Below, piece after piece: positions 7,210 to 36,581 of a stretch of 44,654 nucleotides of DNA. The notes beneath the pieces are model-generated. The model made no database searches and had not been told where the DNA came from. It saw only the letters and a list, made by a program, of their open reading frames with translations. The position numbers and the translations under genes were made by a program. How positions within the stretch are numbered: position 1 is the stretch's first letter; every line of letters starts with the position of its first letter. Source of the DNA: a virus; IMG/VR virus record IMGVR_UViG_3300045971_000138, positions 1 to 44,654 of that record; one strand, given 5' to 3'.

Positions 7210-7701
7210 TTAGATCTCCACATCATTATATTGAAGGTTAGCAGGATTATCTCTGAGAGATTGAGCCATTGCTGTTATTCCTGCAGCCATAGCATTTCTT
7301 GGTTTATATCCTATCTCGTGATGTATGCTTCTAGAAGGACATATCTCAATAAGAGCACGCATAAAGAGTATCCCATGATTAGCTGAGAACTGTTTCCTAT
7401 TAAAGCATATAGCATGAGCCATTTCATGCGCTACATACCACTCCATATACTCTGCGCCTTTATTCATAGCCCAGATTGGAATTGTTATGATCTTTGTCTC
7501 ATAATAGCAACGACCTCTCTTAGCTTCTACAGCGTAGAAGTTCCAGTTCTTGCTTATGAGATCATTGTATGTTATCAAGAGATCAGGGGATATTGTTTTA
7601 TTTAGTCTATCCGTCTCTTTGAAAGAGATTCCTTTCGGATACTTATTAAGGGGGATTATCTTAAACTCATCATCATCTTGTTTCATTATTAGGGTGTTCA
7701 T
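7210..7701 (-). CDS. SprT-like zinc metallopeptidase domain protein (163 aa)
   Basis: Residues 92-96 read HEMAH, an HExxH zinc protease motif. They are followed 12 residues later by NHG (H109) in the arrangement HE-aH...HG-F seen in SprT/Spartan-like putative metallopeptidases. The preceding strand (TKIITIPIWA) fits the family. The start ATG at 7701 has AAGGAAG upstream. As the second gene from the early promoter it is expressed early and may cleave a host or DNA-bound protein. SprT/Spartan relatives remove DNA-protein crosslinks; whether that applies here is inference. Confidence 0.7.
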   Translation of the reverse strand: MNTLIMKQDDDEFKIIPLNKYPKGISFKETDRLNKTISPDLLITYNDLISKNWNFYAVEAKRGRCYYETKIITIPIWAMNKGAEYMEWYVAHEMAHAICFNRKQFSANHGILFMRALIEICPSRSIHHEIGYKPRNAMAAGITAMAQSLRDNPANLQYNDVEI

Positions 7702-17051: not shown

Positions 17052-17657
17052 ATGGAATTCGCAGAAGCTCTTTCAGAGGCAATCGGAATAACAGCTCGTC
17101 CAGATAAGAGCACGGAAACCGAATCTGCCATCAATGCCACTATCTCTCTTTATACAACTAAGGTCAACTGGGCTAAGGATCTCGTAGAGACTTCTCTCGT
17201 CGTAGATCCTACCCTTTATGGGGCTACACTTCAATTTAATAATGTAGTTCCCACAAGTCTTGTAACACGTTTCCGTAAGTTCAAGTATGTAAAACCAAGG
17301 GATGTTAAGAGATATCTTCATCCTATAGGAGCTGATAAAGTATTCACTCCTGGAGAGTTTATCCAACGTGATGTATATTACGTAGGAGGTAATTCTATAA
17401 CCTACGTTCTTAGAGAACTTACTCCGTCACTTGAGATAGGTTATTATCAGTTTCCGTATAAACTAGATCTTGTTACCAATAAGACACATTGGATGCTTGA
17501 TCTCATGCCGTGGGCTGTGATAGATAAAGCCTGCGCAAGAATATTTCGTTCTATAGGTGATGATACCTCAGCTAAGTCATATGAGAGTTCTGCCTATGAA
17601 TTATTTACCGCAGCAAAGAGAGATTTTGAAGATCTTATTACTCCAGAGGCGAAATAA
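17052..17657 (+). CDS. Tail adaptor protein, T7 gp11-like (head-tail connection)
   Basis: At 201 residues it matches the usual length of podovirus adaptors (T7 gp11, 196 residues). The N-terminal helix begins MEFAEALSEAIGITARPDKS. The C-terminal part has the typical helical ending (MPWAVIDKACARIFRSIGDD, followed by a long helix). The adaptor ring sits beneath the portal. The stop overlaps the start of the fibre gene (TAATG). Confidence 0.7.
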   Translation: MEFAEALSEAIGITARPDKSTETESAINATISLYTTKVNWAKDLVETSLVVDPTLYGATLQFNNVVPTSLVTRFRKFKYVKPRDVKRYLHPIGADKVFTPGEFIQRDVYYVGGNSITYVLRELTPSLEIGYYQFPYKLDLVTNKTHWMLDLMPWAVIDKACARIFRSIGDDTSAKSYESSAYELFTAAKRDFEDLITPEAK

Positions 17658-20600
17658 TGGGTGCCTTTAATAATACTCCAGAGATAGTAGCACAAGTTCC
17701 TGTAGCTTCCTCTACTGTATTAGGCGGTGTAAAACCTCGCTCAGGTCTTGCTGTAGACTCTTATGGAAATCTTGATGTAGTATCAGGATATTCTGGTAAG
17801 AGCGGGGGTTCCGGCTATTCTGGTTATTCTGGACCTTCAGGATATTCTGGTTATAGCAGTGCTAGTGGCTATAGTGGATTCTCTGGTTATAGCGGATACA
17901 GTGGTATCTCTGGGAAGAGTGGATATTCTGGTGTTGGTATATCAGGATTCTCAGGTTTCCCAGGAGCTACAAGTCCTTCTGGTTATTCTGGACCTTCTGG
18001 TTATTCAGGTTCTAATGGTCTTTCTGGTATCTCTGGATATTCTGGTTTCACTGGTCCTGCTGGTATTAGTGGATATTCTGGATATTCTGGTTCTGGTATC
18101 TCTGGTTTTTCAGGATATTCTGGACTTATAGGTAATAGTGGATATTCTGGATTCTCTGGATATAGCGGAAGAAGTGGTTATTCTGGTTTCTCAGGAGCTC
18201 CTGGTAATTTCGTAGCTTCTGGATTCTCTGGCTATTCAGGTTATTATGGAGCAGATGGTGTTTCAGGATTCTCTGGATATTCTGGTGCTAGTGGACCTTC
18301 TGATCCTTCTGGATACTCTGGATATTCTGGAAGAAGTGGTTATTCAGGATCTAATGGTACAAATGGTACTAGCGGTTATTCTGGATTCTCCGGCTCTAAT
18401 GGAATAAATGGCACAAGTGGCTATTCTGGTTCTAACGGAACTAATGGATCAAGTGGTTATTCTGGGTATTCCGGTTCTAATGGTATCAATGGAACTAGCA
18501 CTAGTGGATATTCTGGATATAGTGGTTCTAATGGAACGAACGGTGTATCTGGATACTCTGGCTCTAATGGGACTAACGGAGTCTCTGGGTATTCTGGTTC
18601 AAATGGGACTAATGGTGCATCTGGATATTCTGGTTATTCAGGTACTAATGGTGCGGGTGGTTCTACTACAGGTACTTTAACTCCTACTGGTACGACTGCT
18701 GCTACCTCTGCTAATATAACAACTGATGTAACCATAGTACAAGGGGCTGGAGGTAATTTTCTTGGTGTTAATCTAAATAGCACTACTGTTAATACCATAA
18801 GAGAAGTATATAATTATGGTGGTTATGTAGTTAAGGTGTATGCTGATACTGCTACTGCCTATATAGATATGATAGGGGGTAATGCTCCTTATCTACTACG
18901 ACCATATGAGTCTATTAGACTAAGGTATATGGGTAGTAGTATGTGGAATCTGATTGGTGCAGCTGATGTTGATATAATTAACGTAGGTGCAGGTGGGACT
19001 AATCAATCTAATGCTACGTTAATACCAGGTAAAGTAGCTAGGATAAGTTCTGGGACTTCTGGTCAAGGTATATATCTCCCACATAATGATCTATCTGATT
19101 ATTATGGCCGTGCAGTTATATTCAATGCTACGGCAGCTCCGATTAATGTATATCCTGGATCTGGAGCTAGTATAAATGCTTTAGCAGTTAATGCTCCTTT
19201 TGTATTAGCTGGTAATACCTCTATCTCCTTGTATAAATACACAGGACAATGGTTAACAGAAGGTGGTGGATCAGGTGGTGCTAGTGGTTATAGTGGTTAT
19301 AGTGGAACCAATGGGATAAGTGGTTTCAGTGGGGCTACTGGTACTAGTGGTTATAGTGGAAAGAGTGGTTATAGTGGAACCAACGGAGGAGCTGGAAATT
19401 ATACCAGTATCTCCTCTGCTGGTACTACTGCTGCTACTGCCTCTGCTATAACAGCAGGTTTTACAGATCTTGATATTCTAAGTAATACAGAGGATGAGGG
19501 TGTACGTTTACCAGCTTGTTCTCTAGGTGTTACATGTACTATCAAGAATGGTAATGAGACAACTGCCGCTTATTCTTATGGTTATACATTCTTTGTGTAT
19601 CCTCCAACAGGTGGTTCTCTTATAGTTAATAACGTAGCTCTGGCTGTTGATGCCGGTATTCCAGTTACTCCTCAGAGTGTATTAAGATGTGTTAGTAGTG
19701 CATCCAATTGGTTAGTTACTCTTTATCCTATTCCATATGATACTGCTAGTAATGCTATAGGAACAACAGCTTGGGATGCTGATCGTATTCAAGGTCGTGA
19801 TGCGATAATTAAATTCAGTTATCCTAACGGTACTTGTAAATTACCTTTGCCAGTAAAATCCCAGTTAAATCGTGTATTTAACATCACAGCTAATACCATA
19901 TATGTATATCCTCATAGTGGTAGTTATATAAATGCTTTGGCTGTTAATACAGGATATGCAATACCTTCTGGAGGACAAGCAGAATTTATATTTACAGATG
20001 TCTATGATCCTAGATGGAGAACTATAGGAGGAGGTGGAGGAACTTCTGGTTATTCTGGTTATTCTGGATCAAATGGTACTAATGGTACTAGTGGGTCTAA
20101 TGGAACTAATGGATCTTCTGGTTACTCAGGATTCTCTGGTTCTAATGGTACTGGCTCAACAGGAGCCTTTATACAAAAGACTGTACTTACTGCTACTGGT
20201 TCATTTCAAACAACTGCTCAGACTTCTGGTATCTTCATAAGATTATGGGGTGCTGGCGCAGGTGGTGGTGGTGTATCTTCTACTACAGCATCCTCTGGTG
20301 CAGTAGCAGGAGGAGGTGGTGCAGGAGGTTATACTGAAGATAGACAGACTGTTTCATCCTCTACTTGGTATAACTTTGGAATAGGTGCAGGTGGTGCAGG
20401 AGGTGTAGGAAACCTTTCTGGAGCTACTGGAGGTCTTACTGTATTCTCTGGTACTGCTGTGGTATCTGCTTCTGGAGGTCTAGGAGGATCTGGTGGTGCT
20501 CAAAGTACTGTAGCTAGTAAATTCGCAGCGGGAGGAGCAGGAGCACCAATAGGATTCAGTGGTGATGTATTAGGAGGTGGTGGAGTAGGTGAGTTTGGTA

Positions 20601-20809
20601 TGATGGCTTCTCAAGTAGTAGGTCATGGAGGTAATGGAGCTAACTCAACTCTAGGAGGTGGTGGAGTAGGACCTACTACAAGCTCTAATAACGGTGGTGT
20701 TGCTAACGGATATGCAGCAGGGGGTGCTGGAGCCCTTATTATAACCTCCGGTCTTAGAAGTGGTGGTGCAGGCTCAGCGGGACTTATAGTTATAGAACAG
20801 TACAGTTAA
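17657..20809 (+). CDS. Collagen-like tail or head fibre with glycine-rich tip (1050 aa)
   Basis: Residues 1-42 (containing VPVASSTVLGGVKPRSGLAV) form a virion-attachment segment of a type common in fibres. About residues 44-335 are Gly-X-Y collagen repeats, mostly GYSGYSG and GSNGTNG. Two shorter collagen blocks lie near 540-580 and 795-835. Between them are four related beta-domains of about 80-95 residues, three with a recognisable 'YP-x-G-x-x-I/V-x-x-x-A-V-N/D ... W' core. The last 210 residues are a poly-glycine-rich tip (GAGAGGGG, AGGGGAGG) ending SAGLIVIEQYS, as in glycine-rich adhesin domains (Gly_rich_2; compare gp38 adhesins). It probably forms a trimer and binds the host receptor. 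Location after the adaptor leaves open head versus tail attachment. Confidence 0.8.
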   Translation: MGAFNNTPEIVAQVPVASSTVLGGVKPRSGLAVDSYGNLDVVSGYSGKSGGSGYSGYSGPSGYSGYSSASGYSGFSGYSGYSGISGKSGYSGVGISGFSGFPGATSPSGYSGPSGYSGSNGLSGISGYSGFTGPAGISGYSGYSGSGISGFSGYSGLIGNSGYSGFSGYSGRSGYSGFSGAPGNFVASGFSGYSGYYGADGVSGFSGYSGASGPSDPSGYSGYSGRSGYSGSNGTNGTSGYSGFSGSNGINGTSGYSGSNGTNGSSGYSGYSGSNGINGTSTSGYSGYSGSNGTNGVSGYSGSNGTNGVSGYSGSNGTNGASGYSGYSGTNGAGGSTTGTLTPTGTTAATSANITTDVTIVQGAGGNFLGVNLNSTTVNTIREVYNYGGYVVKVYADTATAYIDMIGGNAPYLLRPYESIRLRYMGSSMWNLIGAADVDIINVGAGGTNQSNATLIPGKVARISSGTSGQGIYLPHNDLSDYYGRAVIFNATAAPINVYPGSGASINALAVNAPFVLAGNTSISLYKYTGQWLTEGGGSGGASGYSGYSGTNGISGFSGATGTSGYSGKSGYSGTNGGAGNYTSISSAGTTAATASAITAGFTDLDILSNTEDEGVRLPACSLGVTCTIKNGNETTAAYSYGYTFFVYPPTGGSLIVNNVALAVDAGIPVTPQSVLRCVSSASNWLVTLYPIPYDTASNAIGTTAWDADRIQGRDAIIKFSYPNGTCKLPLPVKSQLNRVFNITANTIYVYPHSGSYINALAVNTGYAIPSGGQAEFIFTDVYDPRWRTIGGGGGTSGYSGYSGSNGTNGTSGSNGTNGSSGYSGFSGSNGTGSTGAFIQKTVLTATGSFQTTAQTSGIFIRLWGAGAGGGGVSSTTASSGAVAGGGGAGGYTEDRQTVSSSTWYNFGIGAGGAGGVGNLSGATGGLTVFSGTAVVSASGGLGGSGGAQSTVASKFAAGGAGAPIGFSGDVLGGGGVGEFGMMASQVVGHGGNGANSTLGGGGVGPTTSSNNGGVANGYAAGGAGALIITSGLRSGGAGSAGLIVIEQYS
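17788..18660 (+). repeat. Degenerate tandem repeat coding Gly-X-Y collagen triplets
   Basis: The DNA consists of 9- to 18-base units such as GGATATTCTGGT and GGTTCTAATGGA with many synonymous changes. It stays in frame and codes the collagen-like stalk. Such repeats can change length by recombination, so stalk length may vary between isolates. Confidence 0.8.
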
Positions 20810-20867: not shown

Positions 20868-22469
20868 ATGTCAGATGAAGAACAATATGCACTAGGTAAT
20901 GATTGGGAAAGACCTGTTATAGGAAATACGGAAGAACTTAGTGAGACCAATCTTCCTAGAGAATATAACAGGTATAAGTTTGCAGCCACATTTATAAAAG
21001 AAGGGATGTCTGTTCTTGAGTTCGGATGTGCTTCTGGATATGGAACTAAGATACTTCCTTCTTCTATAGATTACACAGGCGTTGACTATGATGCGGGTAT
21101 AGTAGAATTCGCTAAGAAGAATTTCGAAGACTCTAGTCATAAGTTTGTACAAAGTGGAATAGAAGAATTCCTAGAAACTAATACTAGGAAGTATGACATA
21201 ATCATAGCTTATGAGATTCTTGAGCATATAGCTAGAGGTAAGGAAGTAGCACAAGAGTTAAAGAAACATTGTTCTACTCTGATTATATCAACTCCCTATA
21301 ATGAGTTTCCTGGATTCTGGGGAAAACATCACGTTCTGCATCATCTGAAAGCTAAGGATTTTCCTTCCTTCTATTACATATATATGCACGTAGATGGTTC
21401 TCTTCATGATACACCGACACAAGAACCTACGAATCTCCTTATCATGACATGGGAGGAAGGTAAAGAATATAGCAATAAAAAGACAATCCTTTGTGCTATC
21501 CCTACAAGAGATAGATATGATTGTCTTATGCTTACATTACAATCTGTTGCATTTCAGACAGTCAAACCAGATAAGATAATAATCTATGATGACTCTCCGA
21601 ATAAGATGGATGTAAGAGAACATGTTGTTGGAAGATATTTACTTCCTCTTCTATCTCAGAAAGGAATAGAGTGGGAAGTTGTATTCACTCCAGGTAGAGG
21701 ACAACATATAGCACATCAGTTATCTAACACATCAGGCTATGATTATGTATGGCGTCTTGATGATGATACAATAGCTGAACCTGATGTGTTAGAAAGATTA
21801 GTTAAAATCTTAGGGAGTTCTACTGATATAGGAGCGTCTGCCGGAGCTGTCTATGAACCAGATAGGATAGTGTTTGGAGATGCTACAAAAAAAGAACATT
21901 TCTTTGATCGTAATAATGTACAGTGGGCTCCTAATCATGGTATATACGAAGTTGAGTGGTTATATTCCTCCTTCTTATATCGTGCTGGAATAACCAACTA
22001 TAAACATAATATGTCTCCGGCGGCTTTTCACGAAGAGAGTATATTTTCACATCGTCTAAGACTTGCTGGTTATCGTCTTATCGTTGATACAACCATACAT
22101 ACATATCATTATAAGGCCAGAACAGGAGGTACTAGGACTGGGAATCCTGATATGGAATGGGCTTATAATTGGGATCAAGTAGAATTCAATAAGATAATAG
22201 AGAATGAATGGGGTATGAAGTTGATACATCTTGGAGTAGGTCTAGGAGATAATATAGTATTCTCCAGAATCCTCCCAGAACTTAAAAAGAAATATCCTAT
22301 CATAGTTCTTGGATCTTGTTATCCTGAGGTTTTTCAAGATATGGGAGTTCACTTCATATCAGTCGAAAGATCTACTGAACTCAATGGAGATAATATCTAC
22401 GACTGGATGTCGGAACGAGATTGGAAAGGTTCCATAGAAGAAGCTTATCGTAGGATGTATTTGCTATGA
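20868..22469 (+). CDS. Fused methyltransferase-glycosyltransferase (GT2) with GT9 N-terminal half
   Basis: There are three parts. Residues 45-185 form a class I SAM methyltransferase (VLEFGCASGYG at 50-60, GVDYDAGIVEFA, IIIAYEILEHI). Residues 207-445 form a family 2 GT-A glycosyltransferase (CAIPTRDRYDC; acidic metal motif WRLDDDTIAEPD at about 296). Residues 450-533 resemble the N-terminal half of a GT9 (heptosyltransferase-like) enzyme (MKLIHLGVGLGDNIVFSRIL), whose C-terminal half is the next gene. It lies directly after the fibre gene, so it may modify virion fibres or surface glycans. A structural or accessory role of inactive domains cannot be excluded. Confidence 0.8.
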   Translation: MSDEEQYALGNDWERPVIGNTEELSETNLPREYNRYKFAATFIKEGMSVLEFGCASGYGTKILPSSIDYTGVDYDAGIVEFAKKNFEDSSHKFVQSGIEEFLETNTRKYDIIIAYEILEHIARGKEVAQELKKHCSTLIISTPYNEFPGFWGKHHVLHHLKAKDFPSFYYIYMHVDGSLHDTPTQEPTNLLIMTWEEGKEYSNKKTILCAIPTRDRYDCLMLTLQSVAFQTVKPDKIIIYDDSPNKMDVREHVVGRYLLPLLSQKGIEWEVVFTPGRGQHIAHQLSNTSGYDYVWRLDDDTIAEPDVLERLVKILGSSTDIGASAGAVYEPDRIVFGDATKKEHFFDRNNVQWAPNHGIYEVEWLYSSFLYRAGITNYKHNMSPAAFHEESIFSHRLRLAGYRLIVDTTIHTYHYKARTGGTRTGNPDMEWAYNWDQVEFNKIIENEWGMKLIHLGVGLGDNIVFSRILPELKKKYPIIVLGSCYPEVFQDMGVHFISVERSTELNGDNIYDWMSERDWKGSIEEAYRRMYLL

Positions 22470-28059: not shown

Positions 28060-29082
28060 ATGACAACAGGATGGTCTAATAGTACAGCCGATGGAATACC
28101 ATCTACTTCTTCAGCTTTAGAATCTACCACAGTAAGTAATAGTGGGGGTGGATCTACTAGTGGTGGAGGTACATCATTTGGTTCTCATAGTTCTTCTACG
28201 ACTGGAACTGGCGTATCTAAGACTGAGGGATATAATCAGACTCTCACACAAGCTCTTTCTCCAGAAGCTATTGCTGCTTTGATGAATACTATACAGCAAA
28301 TGGGGAATGGTGGAACTACTAACCAGAAGGCAGAGCAAGCCTATAGAGAACAGACTCGTCAAGCAATTATGAAGTTGTTTGATTCTATTGGATCAGACAA
28401 TGCCTTCTCAGATGCGGAAGGTCTCATGGCTGTACAGATGAGAATTGCTCTTGAAAAGAATATGCCAGCTATTGCGAAAGCAGTAGAAGGTGCGGGAACA
28501 TCAGCCTCCTCCATGCAAGGCCTTCTTTCGAATGATCTAGTAACTCGTTCATCTGAGGCGAGTGCGGCTCTTGGTGGAGAGCAAGCTAAGGCATATGCAA
28601 GTGAGAGAAGTAAGCTTGCAGCTGATCTTGCTAACATGGCTAATAATCCTAACAACCAAGTAGAAAATACTCTTGTAGCAGCACTTAATGCTCTTAAAGG
28701 TGCTCTTACTGTATCTAATTCTACGAGTAACAGCACAACTAACTCTGTGAATAATAGTGTAACTACTGGAACACAAAGTTCTTCTTCTACCAATAATAGT
28801 ACAACCAATCCAGGAAGTTCTACTTCTACAACCACAAGAGGTGGGGGTGGTGGAGGTTCTATTGGTTATAGTAATAATGGTAGTGGCTATACTGGAAACA
28901 CCTACGATAATAATGGTATAGTCGTAGGTAATGTAGATGATACAAGTGGTGGAGGAAGTGATTCTTATTACACCGGAGATACTGATGGAGGTTATATAGA
29001 TAGAAGTGAGAATACTGATTATATCACCTTACCTCCAGAGTATGATCCTTACGCAAGTGCTGACTCTTACTACGGGTACTAG
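28060..29082 (+). CDS. Ser/Thr/Asn/Gly-rich virion protein, probable ejection protein (340 aa)
   Basis: A low-complexity N-terminus (residues 1-60) is followed by a helical centre, residues 62-215, containing ALSPEAIAALMNTIQQMGNG. A long Ser/Thr/Asn/Gly tail follows (STNNSTTNPGSSTSTTTRGG), then a Tyr/Asp-rich end. It is the first of three genes before the late terminator, the position of internal virion proteins in podoviruses. The helical core could form a channel; this is inferred from position and composition. Confidence 0.65.
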   Translation: MTTGWSNSTADGIPSTSSALESTTVSNSGGGSTSGGGTSFGSHSSSTTGTGVSKTEGYNQTLTQALSPEAIAALMNTIQQMGNGGTTNQKAEQAYREQTRQAIMKLFDSIGSDNAFSDAEGLMAVQMRIALEKNMPAIAKAVEGAGTSASSMQGLLSNDLVTRSSEASAALGGEQAKAYASERSKLAADLANMANNPNNQVENTLVAALNALKGALTVSNSTSNSTTNSVNNSVTTGTQSSSSTNNSTTNPGSSTSTTTRGGGGGGSIGYSNNGSGYTGNTYDNNGIVVGNVDDTSGGGSDSYYTGDTDGGYIDRSENTDYITLPPEYDPYASADSYYGY

Positions 29083-29091
29083 GAGATAGAT

Positions 29092-30963
29092 ATGGCAGCC
29101 GCACAAAGCTCGCAAAGTTTAGAAGATATTCTAATGAGTCTTGCCAATAGTCCTGAGATTCCTGCAGGACAGGAGGCTACAACTCAACCCGTAGAAGATT
29201 CTTCTGCTCCTATCACCCAAGAACTTACCAATGATGCAGAACAGGTTATCCAGTCTGCCGATAGCTTTGTAACTCCTGATGAATCTCCTGTTGTTGTGGC
29301 AGATTCTTCGGGAAGTGTTCCTATCGGGATTCAACCTAAGAGACGAGTCATAACTAATATCCCATCCGAGATAATGAAACTCGACAATGATGGGACTATG
29401 CGTCTTATTAAGAATGAGTCAAAACCTACTCGTTTCGGTGGTGAGTTAGGTGATTCTTCTACTGCTCCTGTAACTGGTAAGATTATTCCTATCACTAAAG
29501 TAGGTGATATAACTTCGAGTCTGATAGATACGGCATCTAAGGATATCTCATCTCAGATCTCAGGTCTTGCTTCTGCAAAGACTATAGAAGATCGTGTTCA
29601 ACAATCTCTCCAGATTGATAAGACCTTCACTGAGACTGTAGCGAAAGCTCAGAGTGCTGCAAGACAGTTAGCTGAACAAAATCTAGGACTTCCTGTTATA
29701 GAGCAACAACTTAAAGCATCTGAAGCAAGAGATCATATGCATCCGCTGTGGAAGAAATATATGACGGATAGTAATGAGACTGCTCAGATAAGGGCAAGAC
29801 TCCAAACCACAGAACTTAAGGTAGAGACTCTTGCCAATCGTTACATAAAAGAGAATGGTCCTCTTAATGCAATGGCAAGTTCTGTCAAGAATGCAAAGGC
29901 TCTGGTTGATGTATATAACAGAAAAGACCAGATGAAACAGGATGCTCTTGATCGTGTAGAAGCCGGTGCTGCTGCTAGGAAGGAAGTGAAAGATCAAGCT
30001 GCCATTGATAAAGCAGAGACAGTGTATGCCATGCTTCCCCCAGATGTCAAGAATGATCTTGCTAAGATTCTTCCTAACTCTTTTGGGAATCCTGATATAC
30101 TTGTTCAAGGTAAGACTGTTGACATAGGACTTAAGACCAAGGAAGTAGCTCCTATCCTTCGTGGGGAGATTCAACCGGATAAGTATCTTCAATTCGGTAT
30201 AGAAGCGAATTCGAATATAGGTCTTGCTCTTGCTGCTAATAGACAAGCAGAACAAACAGGAATTCCTTTTAACGTAGTTCGTTCTCAAGTAGCAGCATTG
30301 GATCAATTTGTTAAGAATCCTGCTATCGCGGCTGAGAAGATCAAGAATTATGGTTCTTCTGTTCTAAGTCCTGAAGAACTCAAGGCTTATAACATGGTAT
30401 CGACCATGCAAGATAAAGCATCTCAGACCTCTGCCATGAAGATGCGAGCCTCTATGGTTGATCGTATAGCAACAGAAATGAATAAGAGAGCAGTCATGTC
30501 TGACATAAAGAACTGGCCGATTGCTCCTGGACAACCCTCCCTATATAGTCTCCCAGAATCTAAGGATATCTTCGATAAGGTAAGGACTGCTACAGGTAAA
30601 GATCCTGATATCCTTACATTCTCTAAGATGTTCGTTGGAGATCCTAACATATCGCGGGATGAGTCTCTTCGTAGAAGTAAACTCGTAAAAGATTCATATG
30701 GTGCTGCGATAGAATCCTATAACAATGGTATCTATGGAAATAAACTGGATACTATTAAGATGGTGAATCAAGCAGTTGTTGCAGCTGCTACGAGTACGAT
30801 GGGAAGGATAGGTGAGAAAATAGGATCTATGTTAAATAATAGGATTGAGAACATAGCAAGTCCTCTTAACTTCCCTGTCGGAACTGGGATAGCCTATAGC
30901 AAAGCTATAGCGGGTGGTGCTTCTGATCTCTATAAAGGTATCATAAGTGGGAGTAATCAATAA
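29092..30963 (+). CDS. Probable internal virion (ejection) protein (623 aa)
   Basis: The N-terminal 110 residues are disordered and Ser/Gln/Pro-rich. The rest is almost entirely helical with coiled-coil stretches (ARLQTTELKVETLANRYIKE; EKIKNYGSSVLSPEELKAYN). Length, helicity and place directly before the giant last gene match podovirus gp15-like ejection proteins. The stop overlaps the next start (TAATG). Confidence 0.65.
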   Translation: MAAAQSSQSLEDILMSLANSPEIPAGQEATTQPVEDSSAPITQELTNDAEQVIQSADSFVTPDESPVVVADSSGSVPIGIQPKRRVITNIPSEIMKLDNDGTMRLIKNESKPTRFGGELGDSSTAPVTGKIIPITKVGDITSSLIDTASKDISSQISGLASAKTIEDRVQQSLQIDKTFTETVAKAQSAARQLAEQNLGLPVIEQQLKASEARDHMHPLWKKYMTDSNETAQIRARLQTTELKVETLANRYIKENGPLNAMASSVKNAKALVDVYNRKDQMKQDALDRVEAGAAARKEVKDQAAIDKAETVYAMLPPDVKNDLAKILPNSFGNPDILVQGKTVDIGLKTKEVAPILRGEIQPDKYLQFGIEANSNIGLALAANRQAEQTGIPFNVVRSQVAALDQFVKNPAIAAEKIKNYGSSVLSPEELKAYNMVSTMQDKASQTSAMKMRASMVDRIATEMNKRAVMSDIKNWPIAPGQPSLYSLPESKDIFDKVRTATGKDPDILTFSKMFVGDPNISRDESLRRSKLVKDSYGAAIESYNNGIYGNKLDTIKMVNQAVVAAATSTMGRIGEKIGSMLNNRIENIASPLNFPVGTGIAYSKAIAGGASDLYKGIISGSNQ

Positions 30964-33900
30964 TGACTGATCTTCTGGATCTACCTCCTGAGATTGTTCA
31001 AGCAGGATCTTCTGATGTACCAGTGAATGATCCCTTCGAAAGTCTTGGCTCAAAGTATGATGTCAAGTCTGGGATCGTAGCAGATATGGTAGGAGGTACT
31101 ATTGCTTCTGTAGCAGATTTCGGATCTTCTGTCTGGAATTCTGTTACATTCAATAAATACCCCACATCTACAGAGGATCTCCTAACCCGCATAGATGACA
31201 ATGCTCTTAAGGTATATCAAGAACATCCAGATACAATTCATGCCGCTTCCTTTATAGGAGGTATGCTTGTTCCTACAGGACTTGCTCTTAAGGGGATGAC
31301 ATTAGCTCGTGCTGGAACTAAAGGGATCAATTGGTTTTCTCAAGAAGGAAAGATAGCACAACTTGGAAAGATAGATTCTGTCCTCCAAGAAAGTGGTATC
31401 GCCAGTGCAGCTTATAAGGCAGAACTGCGTGCTCTCTATACCACAAATATAGCGAATGTGGTAGTAGATAATGCTGCAATGGAGATAGCACTCCTTGGGA
31501 CAATGAACGCCCATCCTTTGATGGAAGACTACATGAAGGATCCTGCTAAGAACTTCGGGATCTCAATGCTTCTTGGAACTGCTATCGTAGGTCCTATCTC
31601 TCATATAGGTCTATCGTATGAAGCAAGGATGTCAGCTAAGGAACTATATACTGGAACTCTAAATATCCTAGAGAAAACAGCTACTCCCCTTCATACGATA
31701 GGAGATGCTTCAACTCTGATAAATGACTATCAGAGAAATATCAACACATGGTCTTCTCTCCTCCCCAAGACTGCTGCGGAAGAAACTGCTTCTGGTCTTT
31801 CTAAGACTTCAAGAAGTATCATCTCATCTTTCATAGATACAGCAAAAGGGAAGCAATTAGAGACTCTTAATAATATGCTATCTCCGGAACTTCGTGAGAT
31901 GACTGCTGATTTTAAGACGTCTATCATTGAGAGAATGTACGCTGAGCCAACAAGATTTGCTGGTATCAACAAGATAGAATTCGCAACAACTAAAGAAGAA
32001 CTTGGTTTCCTTGAGACGAAGTTTAACAAACTATTTGGTTCTACTATTCCTGTGGATGCAGGAGGTGCTGCCTTATCCGAGATCCCCCTTACAAGAACTA
32101 TCTTATCAGGTGCTAAGAAGGGTGAACTTACTCCTACGACTATAGTATATTCTCCCGCCTTCGATGGTTTCATGCTTAAGAAAGATCTTGCAGGATATGG
32201 TGTAGCAGCTGATCTTTATCAAGATGAGAAAGCACTTACAAAGGGACTTCCAAATAATTGGTTTCAGATTCCTAATAGAGATGCAAGTCTTGAGATGATG
32301 GTAGAATCTACTGCGAAAGTGGATGCAGAATATCTTAAGAAACTGAAAGCCGTAGATGAGATGTCTATCGAGAAACTTACTGAGATGGTGGTAAGTCCTC
32401 AGGATGCTCCTACGATGAACGCTGTTCTATCTCGTCTTATCAAACTTGGAGAGACTGATCCCACGGTTGCTTCTTCCATCAAGATAACTCTCACAGATGC
32501 GAAACCTGATTGGAATAAAATAGAAGAGGCTCTCTTCAAACAAGTTCCTTTGAGGAATAGAATAACTGGTAAGGTGGGTGTCTCTCCTGATTATCTCCAG
32601 AAGATACAAGCTGAAGTGAAAGGTCAAGCCCTTGAGAGATATAATCTTGGATCAGTCTCTATCTCAGGATTCACAGGACTTGTAAGGAAGTGGATAGGTG
32701 GTGGAGTACAAGATCTAAGAAATGCAGTAGATGATGCCTTTAGGCCGGGTGGTTATGGTAAGAATCGTGGTGCTCTCCCAGAGAATATAGCAGGTGTAAA
32801 GGCAGCCTATAACTCTCCTCAGTCTGTAGCATTTCGTGATATGCTTATGCAGAACGCGGATTCTGATGGGTATGTTTATCTATTCAGAGGTCTTAGGAAA
32901 GAGGCTGTGGGATCTCACTCTTTAGAATCCTTTGCGATGTTTGCTGAGAAGGGAAAAGAATTCGGATCAACTAAGTTATATCGTGTAAAGGTGACTGATA
33001 TTCTTGGTGTGATACGAGACGTAGGTCCTAAATATGATAAGAACGCTGAAGTTCTTGTGATGTCTCATACTCGTGAAGCGCATGATATTCTGCCAATAGC
33101 AGACCGTGCTAAAGCGATACCAGAGGATCTGTTCAAACTTGAGAATTTCGGTCTATCTGCTACTGGTCTTAAATCTTATGAGAAGACTCAGATGAAAGAT
33201 CTTACTGTGAATCTCTATGAAGATTTCGCAGACTCTAATCCTTTTAATAAATTCCATGGAACTAAAGAACTGTGGGATCAGCAAGCTAAGGATTATGTAG
33301 GAGAGGGACTCAAGGCTCATATCAAAGATATTAATGATTTTAATTCTGCTAAGAATCTGAATCAGACTGTCGTAAACAACACAGCAGGATTCCATGAAAT
33401 TATGGAAGCTTTAAACACTCTTAAAATGAATGAGATACAAGCTGGGATAAAACTAGGTGTTCCTCTTGAAACATTAGGTCTCCGCACGAATACTCCTCTT
33501 TATGTCGTAGAACTCATTGCGACCGGATCATTCACTCCTGGTATGAATATGTCTCGTTATACTAAGGCATCTGAGATACAGACATACCTTACTCCTGAGA
33601 ATAGATCTCTCGCTCTCAAGACGACAGCTACAAAAGTCCCAGTTGCAGAACTCCGTGCCTCTAACTTCAAAGCAATGGGAGATGAATCAGATTCTCTTAT
33701 CAAACAAGTTATCATGGAAGGTTCTCCTTCTCAGATCTCTAAAGATCTTGCTGCTTTCCTTTTCACGAAGGATACTCAATATTCTCTAGCTGCTCTTAAA
33801 GCTGCTATTAAAGAGATCACTCCTGCTTCAATAGGTTCTAAGTTCCTTCAATCAACAGACTTCTCTTTGAGAGATATGGGAGATGCGGGAGCAATTATCT

Positions 33901-36581
33901 CCATCCTCGGAAAGAATATGGAACACTTTAAAGGGAGATATACTAACCAGATTCTTGAACCTATCTCTCTTTCCTATAAGTCGATAACAAAAGATCCGGC
34001 TGCGATTGTAGAATTTAATACAGCGAAAGAAGTTAATGCTTCTCTCAAAGGATATAGGGAATTTAACAACGGTAAGTTCTGGGTACAAGATGAGAATGAA
34101 CCCTGGAAGATGGTTCCTGATCCTTCTGGTTCTGGGAAATCTGTCAAGACAATGAATCTCGTACAAGCAGAATGGAAAGGAACTCCGTTTGAGATAACAA
34201 CTCCTTCTGTCCTTCGTTCTTACGAGAATATGCAAGAAGCAGGAAGAGAGTTATATAATCTTCATTCGACAGAGAGAAAGATCCTAGGTCTTCCTCCTAT
34301 GAATGATAATGGATTCTGGATGCCTGCATTTAATCCACGAAATAAGTATATCTCTTTCGTGTGGAATAATAACGATCAGACAACAAGACTCCTTCATGCG
34401 AATACTCCAGAAGAACTTAAATCTCTCGAAGATGCTTTCTCCTCGACTCTTAAAGAGAGGGAGATCGAGAGAGGAATTGTGAAGATAGTAAGAGCAGGTG
34501 AAGAAAGAGAACTCTTCAATAAACTTCAGGGAAGGCATGATCCTATCTTCATGGCTTCTGCTGATATTTCATCTTTCCATAGCGGGGCTTCCACAGCTGC
34601 TATGGTAGCAACGAATAGTAATATCTTTTCGGATCTTGCAAACGCATATGAGCACTATATACATAGAAGTGTTTCTAATATCACTGAGCTTAATCTCTCT
34701 GATGTTATGGGAAGTCTGGATGCAATATCAGCTCTTGTGCGTAGGCCAGTAGCGAAGCAACCAGTATCTAAGATTCAAGAAGCTCTTAACAAACCCCTTG
34801 ATGCTGGGATGATTGCTAAGAATACCCTCCTAGGAAAAAGCAACCTTAAAGAATATACAGCCTGGCAAGATACACAGAATGGTATTCAGACTGCTGTTGA
34901 ATTAGGACTTCAGAGTGTAGCTAAGATAATGGATCCTATTCTGAATCCTATCAAGGGTATCTTCGGGAAAGGTAAGACCTTCTCTGATGCAGAATATGAA
35001 GCTCTCATAAAGGATATGGATACAAGAGGAATTCCTAATCCCTTTAAAGATCTTGATAATGCTGTCGCAAAAGATATATATCATATGGAGAGACTATCTC
35101 AGGCTCCGAATCTTACTCCAAGAATTGTAGCTCTTTCGAATAACCTAGCTGCGACTTTCCTTCTTAAGGTTATGGAGTTAGGACAACCCCTTGTTAATAT
35201 TCTATCTCTACCAGTCCTTACAAGTGCTGCGGTACAAAGGACATTCTCTAAAGAATTCATGGGGACTAAGTTAGCTCCTGACTTCCATATGGGAACCATC
35301 AAGGCTATGTATGGTGGAATACGATATATGGGGAATCCAGAATACCAGAAGTATGTGACACAAGCAAGAGATCTTGGTGTTATGACTCCTGTCGTATCTG
35401 AGGTATCTGAGCTTCTTCAGTTAAGCAGAAGTTTCAATCCTGGTATGATTCAGAAGACAGAGAATCTTTTGAATGGGAAACTTGTAGAGATGCTTTCTAA
35501 GCCAAGTAATTGGTCTGAGACCGCTGTCCGTGAGATGAGTTTTGCTAATGGAGTATATCTCGCAAAGCAAGCTTATCCAGGTCTGCATGATTCGGGTGTG
35601 ATAACCTTTGCTAGGAACTTCATGGATGTAGCTGTAGGAAACTATACTGCATCACAGAGACCTACTGTATTTCAAGGATCTCTTGGTGTAGCTATGGGAC
35701 TCTTTCAGACATACTTTGTAACTCTTATGCAACAGATCTATCGTAGATTTGAGTTAAGAGATTACAAACAACTGGCTAAGATGGCTCTTACACAATCTTC
35801 TATCTTCGGTGTGAAAGGACTCCCAGGGTTTAATCAAATATCAGAACTTATGGGAGAACATTTCTCAGATCAGAACTATGATCTTACAACCGGAACATAT
35901 AGGGCAATTCCTGAAACAGCAGCAAACATCCTTCTATATGGACTTCCATCTAATCTCGGACCGGCTGTCTATACTCGTGGGGATATTCAGCCAAGACTTC
36001 CTAATCCTTTTGGAGGACTTCAAACTCTCGCTTCCGTTAATATCCTTACGAGCGCATATCAGTCAAGTCATAAGTTACTGAGTGCTGCATCTCAGATAGG
36101 AGATCCTGGGACTTTCTCTGCGGTGGGAGAAGCTCTTTCTATGCAGAATATTTCAAGGCCGGTTGCACGTTTATCTGAACTTGCTACAGGATATTCTGTG
36201 ACTCAGAAGGGGAATGAAGTAGCAGGTCCAGAAGAATTATATTCTGCAGCTGGTATCTCTGCTCGTGTGTTTGCTACTCGTTCATTGAGAGAAGCGAAAG
36301 CAAGAGAAGCTATGCATCTTAATTCCATGTATGGAACTCTTGATAGGGATCAAAGAGAAGGAGCAATGGCTGTCCTTAAGAACCACGTTAGAAGTGGAAC
36401 TCTTACACCGGATGTTATGGAGAGAATACAGGAGAAGTATATGAGGACAGGAAGTCCTACTGGATGGAGATCTGTTATCAATAAGACGATACATGATACA
36501 GACTCACCTGGGGTATCCGCTGTTAGGAACCACCTATCTCCTAAGAGTCCAGCGAATATGATGATTGAGAGTTTGGACTGA
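30963..36581 (+). CDS. Giant internal virion (ejection) protein with putative ADP-ribosyltransferase-like segment (1872 aa)
   Basis: This is the last and largest gene of the late unit, about an eighth of the genome. It is mostly helical, with glycine-rich hydrophobic helices near residues 90-105 (FIGGMLVPTGLALKG) and 190-215, and further hydrophobic helices in the C-terminal third (LAATFLLKVMELGQPLVNIL; VFQGSLGVAMGLFQTYFVTL). Such segments fit a protein that forms or crosses a membrane channel on ejection, as T7 gp16 does. Residues 634-710 look like a compact ADP-ribosyltransferase: YLFRG with R642, a Ser-rich SHSLES (651-657), a helix, strand KLYRVKVTDIL, then NAEVLVMS with E696. I saw no lytic transglycosylase motif. 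Confidence 0.7.
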   Translation: MTDLLDLPPEIVQAGSSDVPVNDPFESLGSKYDVKSGIVADMVGGTIASVADFGSSVWNSVTFNKYPTSTEDLLTRIDDNALKVYQEHPDTIHAASFIGGMLVPTGLALKGMTLARAGTKGINWFSQEGKIAQLGKIDSVLQESGIASAAYKAELRALYTTNIANVVVDNAAMEIALLGTMNAHPLMEDYMKDPAKNFGISMLLGTAIVGPISHIGLSYEARMSAKELYTGTLNILEKTATPLHTIGDASTLINDYQRNINTWSSLLPKTAAEETASGLSKTSRSIISSFIDTAKGKQLETLNNMLSPELREMTADFKTSIIERMYAEPTRFAGINKIEFATTKEELGFLETKFNKLFGSTIPVDAGGAALSEIPLTRTILSGAKKGELTPTTIVYSPAFDGFMLKKDLAGYGVAADLYQDEKALTKGLPNNWFQIPNRDASLEMMVESTAKVDAEYLKKLKAVDEMSIEKLTEMVVSPQDAPTMNAVLSRLIKLGETDPTVASSIKITLTDAKPDWNKIEEALFKQVPLRNRITGKVGVSPDYLQKIQAEVKGQALERYNLGSVSISGFTGLVRKWIGGGVQDLRNAVDDAFRPGGYGKNRGALPENIAGVKAAYNSPQSVAFRDMLMQNADSDGYVYLFRGLRKEAVGSHSLESFAMFAEKGKEFGSTKLYRVKVTDILGVIRDVGPKYDKNAEVLVMSHTREAHDILPIADRAKAIPEDLFKLENFGLSATGLKSYEKTQMKDLTVNLYEDFADSNPFNKFHGTKELWDQQAKDYVGEGLKAHIKDINDFNSAKNLNQTVVNNTAGFHEIMEALNTLKMNEIQAGIKLGVPLETLGLRTNTPLYVVELIATGSFTPGMNMSRYTKASEIQTYLTPENRSLALKTTATKVPVAELRASNFKAMGDESDSLIKQVIMEGSPSQISKDLAAFLFTKDTQYSLAALKAAIKEITPASIGSKFLQSTDFSLRDMGDAGAIISILGKNMEHFKGRYTNQILEPISLSYKSITKDPAAIVEFNTAKEVNASLKGYREFNNGKFWVQDENEPWKMVPDPSGSGKSVKTMNLVQAEWKGTPFEITTPSVLRSYENMQEAGRELYNLHSTERKILGLPPMNDNGFWMPAFNPRNKYISFVWNNNDQTTRLLHANTPEELKSLEDAFSSTLKEREIERGIVKIVRAGEERELFNKLQGRHDPIFMASADISSFHSGASTAAMVATNSNIFSDLANAYEHYIHRSVSNITELNLSDVMGSLDAISALVRRPVAKQPVSKIQEALNKPLDAGMIAKNTLLGKSNLKEYTAWQDTQNGIQTAVELGLQSVAKIMDPILNPIKGIFGKGKTFSDAEYEALIKDMDTRGIPNPFKDLDNAVAKDIYHMERLSQAPNLTPRIVALSNNLAATFLLKVMELGQPLVNILSLPVLTSAAVQRTFSKEFMGTKLAPDFHMGTIKAMYGGIRYMGNPEYQKYVTQARDLGVMTPVVSEVSELLQLSRSFNPGMIQKTENLLNGKLVEMLSKPSNWSETAVREMSFANGVYLAKQAYPGLHDSGVITFARNFMDVAVGNYTASQRPTVFQGSLGVAMGLFQTYFVTLMQQIYRRFELRDYKQLAKMALTQSSIFGVKGLPGFNQISELMGEHFSDQNYDLTTGTYRAIPETAANILLYGLPSNLGPAVYTRGDIQPRLPNPFGGLQTLASVNILTSAYQSSHKLLSAASQIGDPGTFSAVGEALSMQNISRPVARLSELATGYSVTQKGNEVAGPEELYSAAGISARVFATRSLREAKAREAMHLNSMYGTLDRDQREGAMAVLKNHVRSGTLTPDVMERIQEKYMRTGSPTGWRSVINKTIHDTDSPGVSAVRNHLSPKSPANMMIESLD

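What the first reader, a model, noticed from the sequence alone, without database searches (positions are those of the whole stretch)
32863..33090. Putative ADP-ribosyltransferase-like segment inside a giant ejection protein
In the 1872-residue last late protein, residues 634-710 show YLFRG (R642), a serine-rich turn (651-657), an A-x-x-x-x-x-F-type helix, strand LYRVKVTDIL and NAEVLVMS (E696). This R-S-E order is the signature of compact ADP-ribosyltransferases. If real, the phage would carry a modifying enzyme in the virion and deliver it with the DNA, as T4 Alt is. The R-to-S distance (about 10 residues) is shorter than usual, so the match needs testing.
Basis: partly seen in the sequence, partly recalled or inferred. 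Interest (0 to 1): 0.7.

Follow-up and report, generated by a model that had tools for sequence, protein, structure and literature searches.

The report
Miniature ADP-ribosyltransferase inside phage ejection protein
A giant protein that this short-tailed phage probably carries in its particle and injects with its DNA contains a small domain that, by conservation, profile comparison and predicted fold, looks like an enzyme that attaches ADP-ribose to host molecules; some close relatives lack that domain entirely, so it looks like an optional weapon rather than part of the injection machine.

Summary
No Pfam, NCBIfam or PDB sequence search finds an ADP-ribosyltransferase (ART). But in 24 copies the triad is among the best-conserved columns (R 22/24, S 22/24, E 23/24), and 11/24 have the full E-x-E motif (window: N-A-E). 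A family profile matches phage T4 ModA/ModB (hhalign E about 0.001, score 29-30; best of 149 shuffles 17.7; no other part of the protein above 17.2), with R, S and, permissively, E-x-E aligned. AlphaFold2 gives a confident beta(R)-beta(S)-helix-beta-beta-beta(E) core; for a relative's model the nine best PDB hits are all R-S-E mono-ARTs (E 0.02-0.65, none individually significant). The domain is a clean module: two proteins 82% identical over 1558 residues differ by its presence; at least four gains or losses. Its R-to-E span is about half the usual. Best reading: a miniature R-S-E ART carried as optional cargo by the ejection protein of PaP2/PaMx41-like podoviruses. Activity, target and injection are untested; two relatives have lost catalytic residues.

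The parts
30963..36581 (+). Giant late protein, 1872 aa (phrog_16165; homologue of PaP2 p25, PaMx41 gp24, Tiera_022, EBPR podovirus 3 gp20), inferred ejection protein
   Evidence: homologues annotated 'structural protein' or hypothetical
32505..33422 (+). Optional module, about residues 515-820; absent as a block in relatives L021, L022, L027, L029, L040, L052
32670..33107 (+). ART-like domain, about residues 570-715: four helices (W577xxG580, R586) then beta(R)-beta(S)-helix-beta-beta-beta(E)
   Evidence: AlphaFold2 model, core pLDDT above 90
32886..32888 (+). R642, predicted NAD-binding arginine of strand 1 (YLFRG)
   Evidence: 22/24 copies R, 2 K; aligns with ModA/ModB R
32928..32930 (+). 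S656, first serine of the S-x-[ST] motif of strand 2 (here S-F-A)
   Evidence: 22/24 S; aligns with ModA/ModB S-F-[ST]
33042..33044 (+). N694, first position of the E-x-E motif (E in 11, N in 9 of 24 copies)
33048..33050 (+). E696, predicted catalytic glutamate (NAEVLV)
   Evidence: 23/24 E, 1 Q; aligns with ModA/ModB E-x-E at permissive threshold
29092..30963 (+). 623-aa late protein upstream, partner in the inferred ejection trio
   Evidence: position; same order in L002-L005; no family match above cut-off
28060..29082 (+). 340-aa late protein (phrog_16266), partner in the inferred ejection trio

Best explanation
Residues about 570-715 form a compact ADP-ribosyltransferase of the R-S-E clade, embedded as an optional cargo module in the giant last late protein of a PaP2/PaMx41-like podovirus. 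Inferred mechanism: the protein is packaged with the two late proteins encoded before it, is ejected at infection, and its ART domain binds NAD+ through R642 and the S656 strand and uses E696 to transfer ADP-ribose to a host macromolecule early in infection. Shown here: the conserved R-S-E triad, the profile similarity to T4 ModA/ModB, the ART-like predicted core, the modular presence/absence. Inferred: packaging, ejection, NAD+ binding, catalysis. Unknown: the target; N694 in place of the first E of E-x-E makes classical arginine transfer less certain.
For: R642/S656/E696 among the most conserved columns of the region. E-x-E in 11 copies, e.g. PaP2 EREWLV, L023 EFEVLV. hhalign with T4 ModA/ModB profile: score 29-30, E 0.0007-0.0012, motifs in register; best of 149 column shuffles 17.7, no other region of the giant protein above 17.2. 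AlphaFold2 core pLDDT above 90 in the window and mean 83 for relative L043; top nine Foldseek PDB hits of the latter all R-S-E mono-ARTs, first non-ART at rank 10 with probability 0.01. Module missing as a block in relatives, including a pair 82% identical elsewhere; at least four changes on a tree built without the module.
Against: No Pfam, NCBIfam or PDB sequence match. Foldseek E-values are never significant on their own and TM-scores reach only 0.41; for the window's own model the best PDB hit is ART2.2 at E 1.2. The R-to-E span is about half that of ModA/ModB and strands after the E-x-E strand are not confidently predicted. Two relatives lost R (L033, L087; L087 also S and E) and one lost S (L041), so at least some copies are probably inactive. 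Virion location of this protein was not tested and the primary PaMx41 paper is not held.
Confidence: 0.68

Rival explanations
1. The domain is an ART by descent but acts as an NAD+ glycohydrolase (or on a small molecule or nucleic acid) rather than as a protein ADP-ribosyltransferase, for example to deplete or pre-empt NAD+-based defence signalling at entry.
For: Window and 8 other copies have N-x-E rather than E-x-E; in arginine-specific ARTs the first E is the one tied to acceptor transfer (established knowledge). ART-fold NAD(P) glycohydrolases exist (PMC13285283, title and abstract).
Against: 11 of 24 copies have the full E-x-E; the nearest detectable profile, ModA/ModB, modifies proteins.
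Confidence: 0.17
2. An ART-derived pseudo-enzyme kept as a structural or binding domain of the ejection protein, with no catalysis.
For: L033 and L087 keep the fold signature but have lost R or the whole triad; the compact size may not form a full NAD+ site; window has S-F-A and N-A-E.
Against: The full triad is retained in 21 of 24 copies while most other columns drift; proteins lacking the module are otherwise intact, so it is not needed structurally.
Confidence: 0.1
3. Not an ART: an unrelated small alpha/beta domain whose R, S and E fall by convergence or chance in ART-like order.
For: No significant single database match.
Against: Profile score against ModA/ModB well above the best of 149 shuffles, with motifs aligned unprompted; nine of nine top PDB folds are R-S-E ARTs; conserved triad.
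Confidence: 0.05

Closest known systems
T4 ModA/ModB (phage R-S-E mono-ARTs)
   Same: YRG arginine, S-F-[ST] followed by A-x-x-F, E-x-E-[VWI]-[LM]; profile match E about 0.001
   Different: Mod are free-standing proteins of about 200 aa; here a domain in an 1872-aa protein; R-S 14 rather than about 24-27 residues, S-E about 40 rather than about 64-76
T4 Alt (head-packaged, injected R-S-E ART)
   Same: Proposed logic: virion-borne ART delivered with the DNA; R-S-E active site
   Different: No detectable profile similarity (E 0.2-0.4); Alt is a 682-aa separate internal protein, not part of a giant late protein
ARTs of polyvalent proteins and N4-like vRNAP fusions (Tox-ART-HYD2 clade, H-Y-D; PMC5512222)
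   Same: ART domain inside a very large phage protein proposed to be injected
   Different: Active site there is H-Y-D, here R-S-E; [quoted passage not shown]
MuF-ART fusions (Alt/VIP2 or N4-ART; PMC9503650)
   Same: ART fused to a virion protein, predicted head-packaged
   Different: Fusion partner is MuF; here the giant protein at the end of the late block, and the ART is internal, not C-terminal
PaP2 p25 / PaMx41 gp24 / Tiera_022 (phrog_16165)
   Same: Orthologues with the same module
   Different: Annotated as hypothetical or structural, in Ph_15 as 'ejection protein peptidoglycan transglycosylase'; no ART annotation in the records seen

Membership tests
ADP-ribosyltransferase, R-S-E clade | Arg at end of strand 1 (aromatic-R-G) | tested here: met
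   R642 in YLFRG, strand 637-644; R 22/24
ADP-ribosyltransferase, R-S-E clade | S-x-[ST] motif in strand 2 | tested here: met
   S656, strand 654-658; S 22/24; third position T or S in 19/24 but A in the window
ADP-ribosyltransferase, R-S-E clade | Catalytic Glu of [E/Q]-x-E | tested here: inconclusive
   E696 present (23/24); first position E in 11/24, N in 9/24 including the window
ADP-ribosyltransferase, R-S-E clade | Split beta-sandwich ART fold | tested here: inconclusive
   Strand/helix order fits; top nine PDB hits R-S-E ARTs for L043 model, E 0.02-0.65, TM up to 0.41; window model weaker
ADP-ribosyltransferase, R-S-E clade | Sequence-profile similarity to a proven ART family | tested here: met
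   T4 ModA/ModB, E 0.0007-0.0012, above all decoys
ADP-ribosyltransferase, R-S-E clade | R642 and E696 close in space around NAD+ | not testable with these tools
ADP-ribosyltransferase, R-S-E clade | NAD+-dependent transfer activity | not testable with these tools
   Needs biochemistry
T4 Alt family | Profile similarity to Alt catalytic domain | tested here: not met
   hhalign score 15.7-17.4, E 0.2-0.4
T4 Alt family | Present in virion and injected | not testable with these tools
   Late position and 'structural protein' annotation of homologues only
ART-PolyVal / Tox-ART-HYD2 | H-Y-D active site | tested here: not met
   R-S-E instead; no Pfam match
Polyvalent protein | Several effector domains in one injected polypeptide | tested here: not met
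   Only one enzymatic domain recognised; no other Pfam or NCBIfam domain

The most novel reading that the evidence does not exclude
A previously unannotated, miniature family of R-S-E ADP-ribosyltransferases (R to E in about 54 residues) that lives as an optional cassette inside the giant ejection protein of a podovirus lineage infecting Pseudomonas, Polaromonas and others, is repeatedly gained and lost, and is delivered with the DNA to modify a host target in the first minutes of infection.
Probability: 0.5. Interest if true: 0.68.

Novelty: new variant of a known kind. Interest (0 to 1): 0.57.

Why it matters
Injected ADP-ribosyltransferases are one of the earliest ways phages take over a cell, but the proven example is T4 Alt, and ARTs of its R-S-E family were said not to occur inside genuine polyvalent phage proteins (PMC5512222). 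This family puts an R-S-E ART inside the presumed ejection protein of cultured podoviruses (PaP2, PaMx41, Tiera), with natural module-plus and module-minus relatives, so its role can be tested by deleting the module from a phage without touching the rest. The repeated gain and loss suggests a host- or defence-dependent benefit. It also offers a small ART for asking what the minimal catalytic core is.

Tried and rejected
Pfam, NCBIfam and PHROGs scans of the window protein, segment and relatives: nothing but phrog_16165; a single DRAT hit (E 0.041 in one of 20 members) was not used as evidence because nine unrelated families scored similarly. PDB sequence search with two profiles: only unrelated weak hits. 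Single-sequence scan of viral contigs found nothing; an over-broad alignment had no usable pattern. One scan of bacterial and archaeal genomes found no cellular relative (only one short pattern was scanned, so this is weak). The T4 Alt profile did not match. T7 gp14/15/16 did not match the giant protein, so similarity to the T7 ejection core is by gene position and size only. A transglycosylase role, as annotated in phage Ph_15, found no domain support. Two partial loci (L028, L050) were wrongly labelled ART in the table; they do not cover the region and were removed for the recount.

Full report
What was claimed. The ORF is at 30963-36581 (+) and the quoted sequence is there.

The phage. The window encodes terminase, portal and major head protein, then a late block that ends with proteins of 340, 623 and 1872 residues before convergent genes for exonuclease, dCTP deaminase, primase and DNA polymerase. 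The giant protein matches only phrog_16165 (E 7e-209). Its relatives are the giant proteins of EBPR podovirus 3, Polaromonas phage Tiera and the Pseudomonas phages PaP2, 119X and PaMx41 (Fredfastierviridae, Jamesmcgillvirus), with the same late gene order in the four relatives whose neighbourhood was read. PaMx41 and Tiera label it a structural protein; I could not check the experimental basis.

Conservation. Scans of IMG/VR gave about 30 more relatives. In nine full-length proteins (relatives 27-39% identical to the window), the invariant columns between residues 205 and 832 are only W577, G580, A632, D633, G636, L640, R642, G643, F667 and E696. In 24 copies of the domain R642 is R in 22, S656 is S in 22 and E696 is E in 23; the position two before E696 is E in 11 and N in 9. 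PaP2 reads LYRG...SSYT...EREWLV and L023 reads LYRG...ESYT...EFEVLV. Two members are degenerate: L033 has K for R, and L087 has lost all three; L041 has G for S.

Link to known ARTs. Pfam, NCBIfam and PDB sequence searches find nothing. I therefore built profiles from T4 ModA, ModB and four relatives, and from T4 Alt and six relatives. hhalign of the family against Mod scores 29.0 (E 0.0012), and 30.4 (E 0.0007) with the larger family alignment; it aligns the YRG arginine, the S-x-T motif and A-x-x-F in register, and with a permissive setting the E-x-E as well. The best of 149 column shuffles scored 17.7, and stretches of the same giant protein outside the domain at most 17.2. Alt does not match (E 0.2-0.4).

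Predicted fold. AlphaFold2 of residues 560-740 with 20 sequences gives mean pLDDT 77, with a core above 90: four helices, then strands 637-644 (R642), 654-658 (S656), a helix, strands 669-676, 680-685 and 695-700 (E696). Foldseek against the PDB puts the ART ART2.2 first but at E 1.2, with many PARPs below. The model of relative L043 (mean pLDDT 83) is clearer: ranks 1-9 are a Listeria ART effector, ExoS, C2-I, ART2.2 and CDTa, all R-S-E mono-ARTs, E 0.02-0.65; the first other fold is rank 10 with probability 0.01. None is individually significant and TM-scores are at most 0.41. The viral library shows the family's own proteins, then several annotated viral ARTs at E 0.2-1.7.

A module. Six relatives lack residues about 515-820 as a block while aligning on both sides; the five of them that are full length or nearly so are about 1450-1570 residues long. 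L031 (module) and L029 (no module) are 82% identical over 1558 shared residues and differ by about 208 residues exactly there. On a tree of the C-terminal 791 columns, which excludes the module, module-minus proteins fall in separate places: four changes at least, and a single module-minus clade is rejected (AU p 2e-71). So the domain is not needed to build or use the giant protein; it behaves like cargo.

Anatomy compared. R to S is 13-16 residues throughout the family against about 24-27 in Mod and 25 in Alt, and S to E is 32-49 against about 64-76 in Mod. It is a compact R-S-E ART. [quoted passage not shown] I found no paper or record among those searched that names an ART in the PaP2/PaMx41 giant protein.

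Verdict. ART-like domain by descent: about 0.9. Catalytically active in most members: about 0.8, split between transferase (favoured) and NAD+ hydrolase. Delivered into the cell: plausible from position and size, not shown. Target unknown.

Noticed in passing
window 17657-20809 (+): 1050-aa late protein with long collagen-like SGYSGxSG repeats, probably a tail fibre or appendage.
   Followed up: no
window 20868-22469 (+): Late-block protein fusing a methyltransferase domain (PF13847, E 2e-10) to a family 2 glycosyltransferase domain (PF00535, E 5e-8).
   Followed up: partly
PV845595.1 (L008:5971-11520): Homologue annotated 'ejection protein peptidoglycan transglycosylase' although no transglycosylase domain was found in the family by Pfam or NCBIfam.
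   Followed up: partly
L033:8402-8971 and L087:7716-8330: Copies of the ART-like domain with lost catalytic residues (K for R; in L087 also T for S and Q for E), natural candidates for inactive controls.
   Followed up: partly
window 7210-7701 (-): SprT-like metalloprotease-type domain, just below Pfam's cut-off (24.2 v. 25.6 bits).
   Followed up: no
L006:5920-11403, L054 and L055: Distant giant-protein relatives of similar length that lack a detectable ART domain and match no Pfam family; what fills the corresponding region is unknown.
   Followed up: partly
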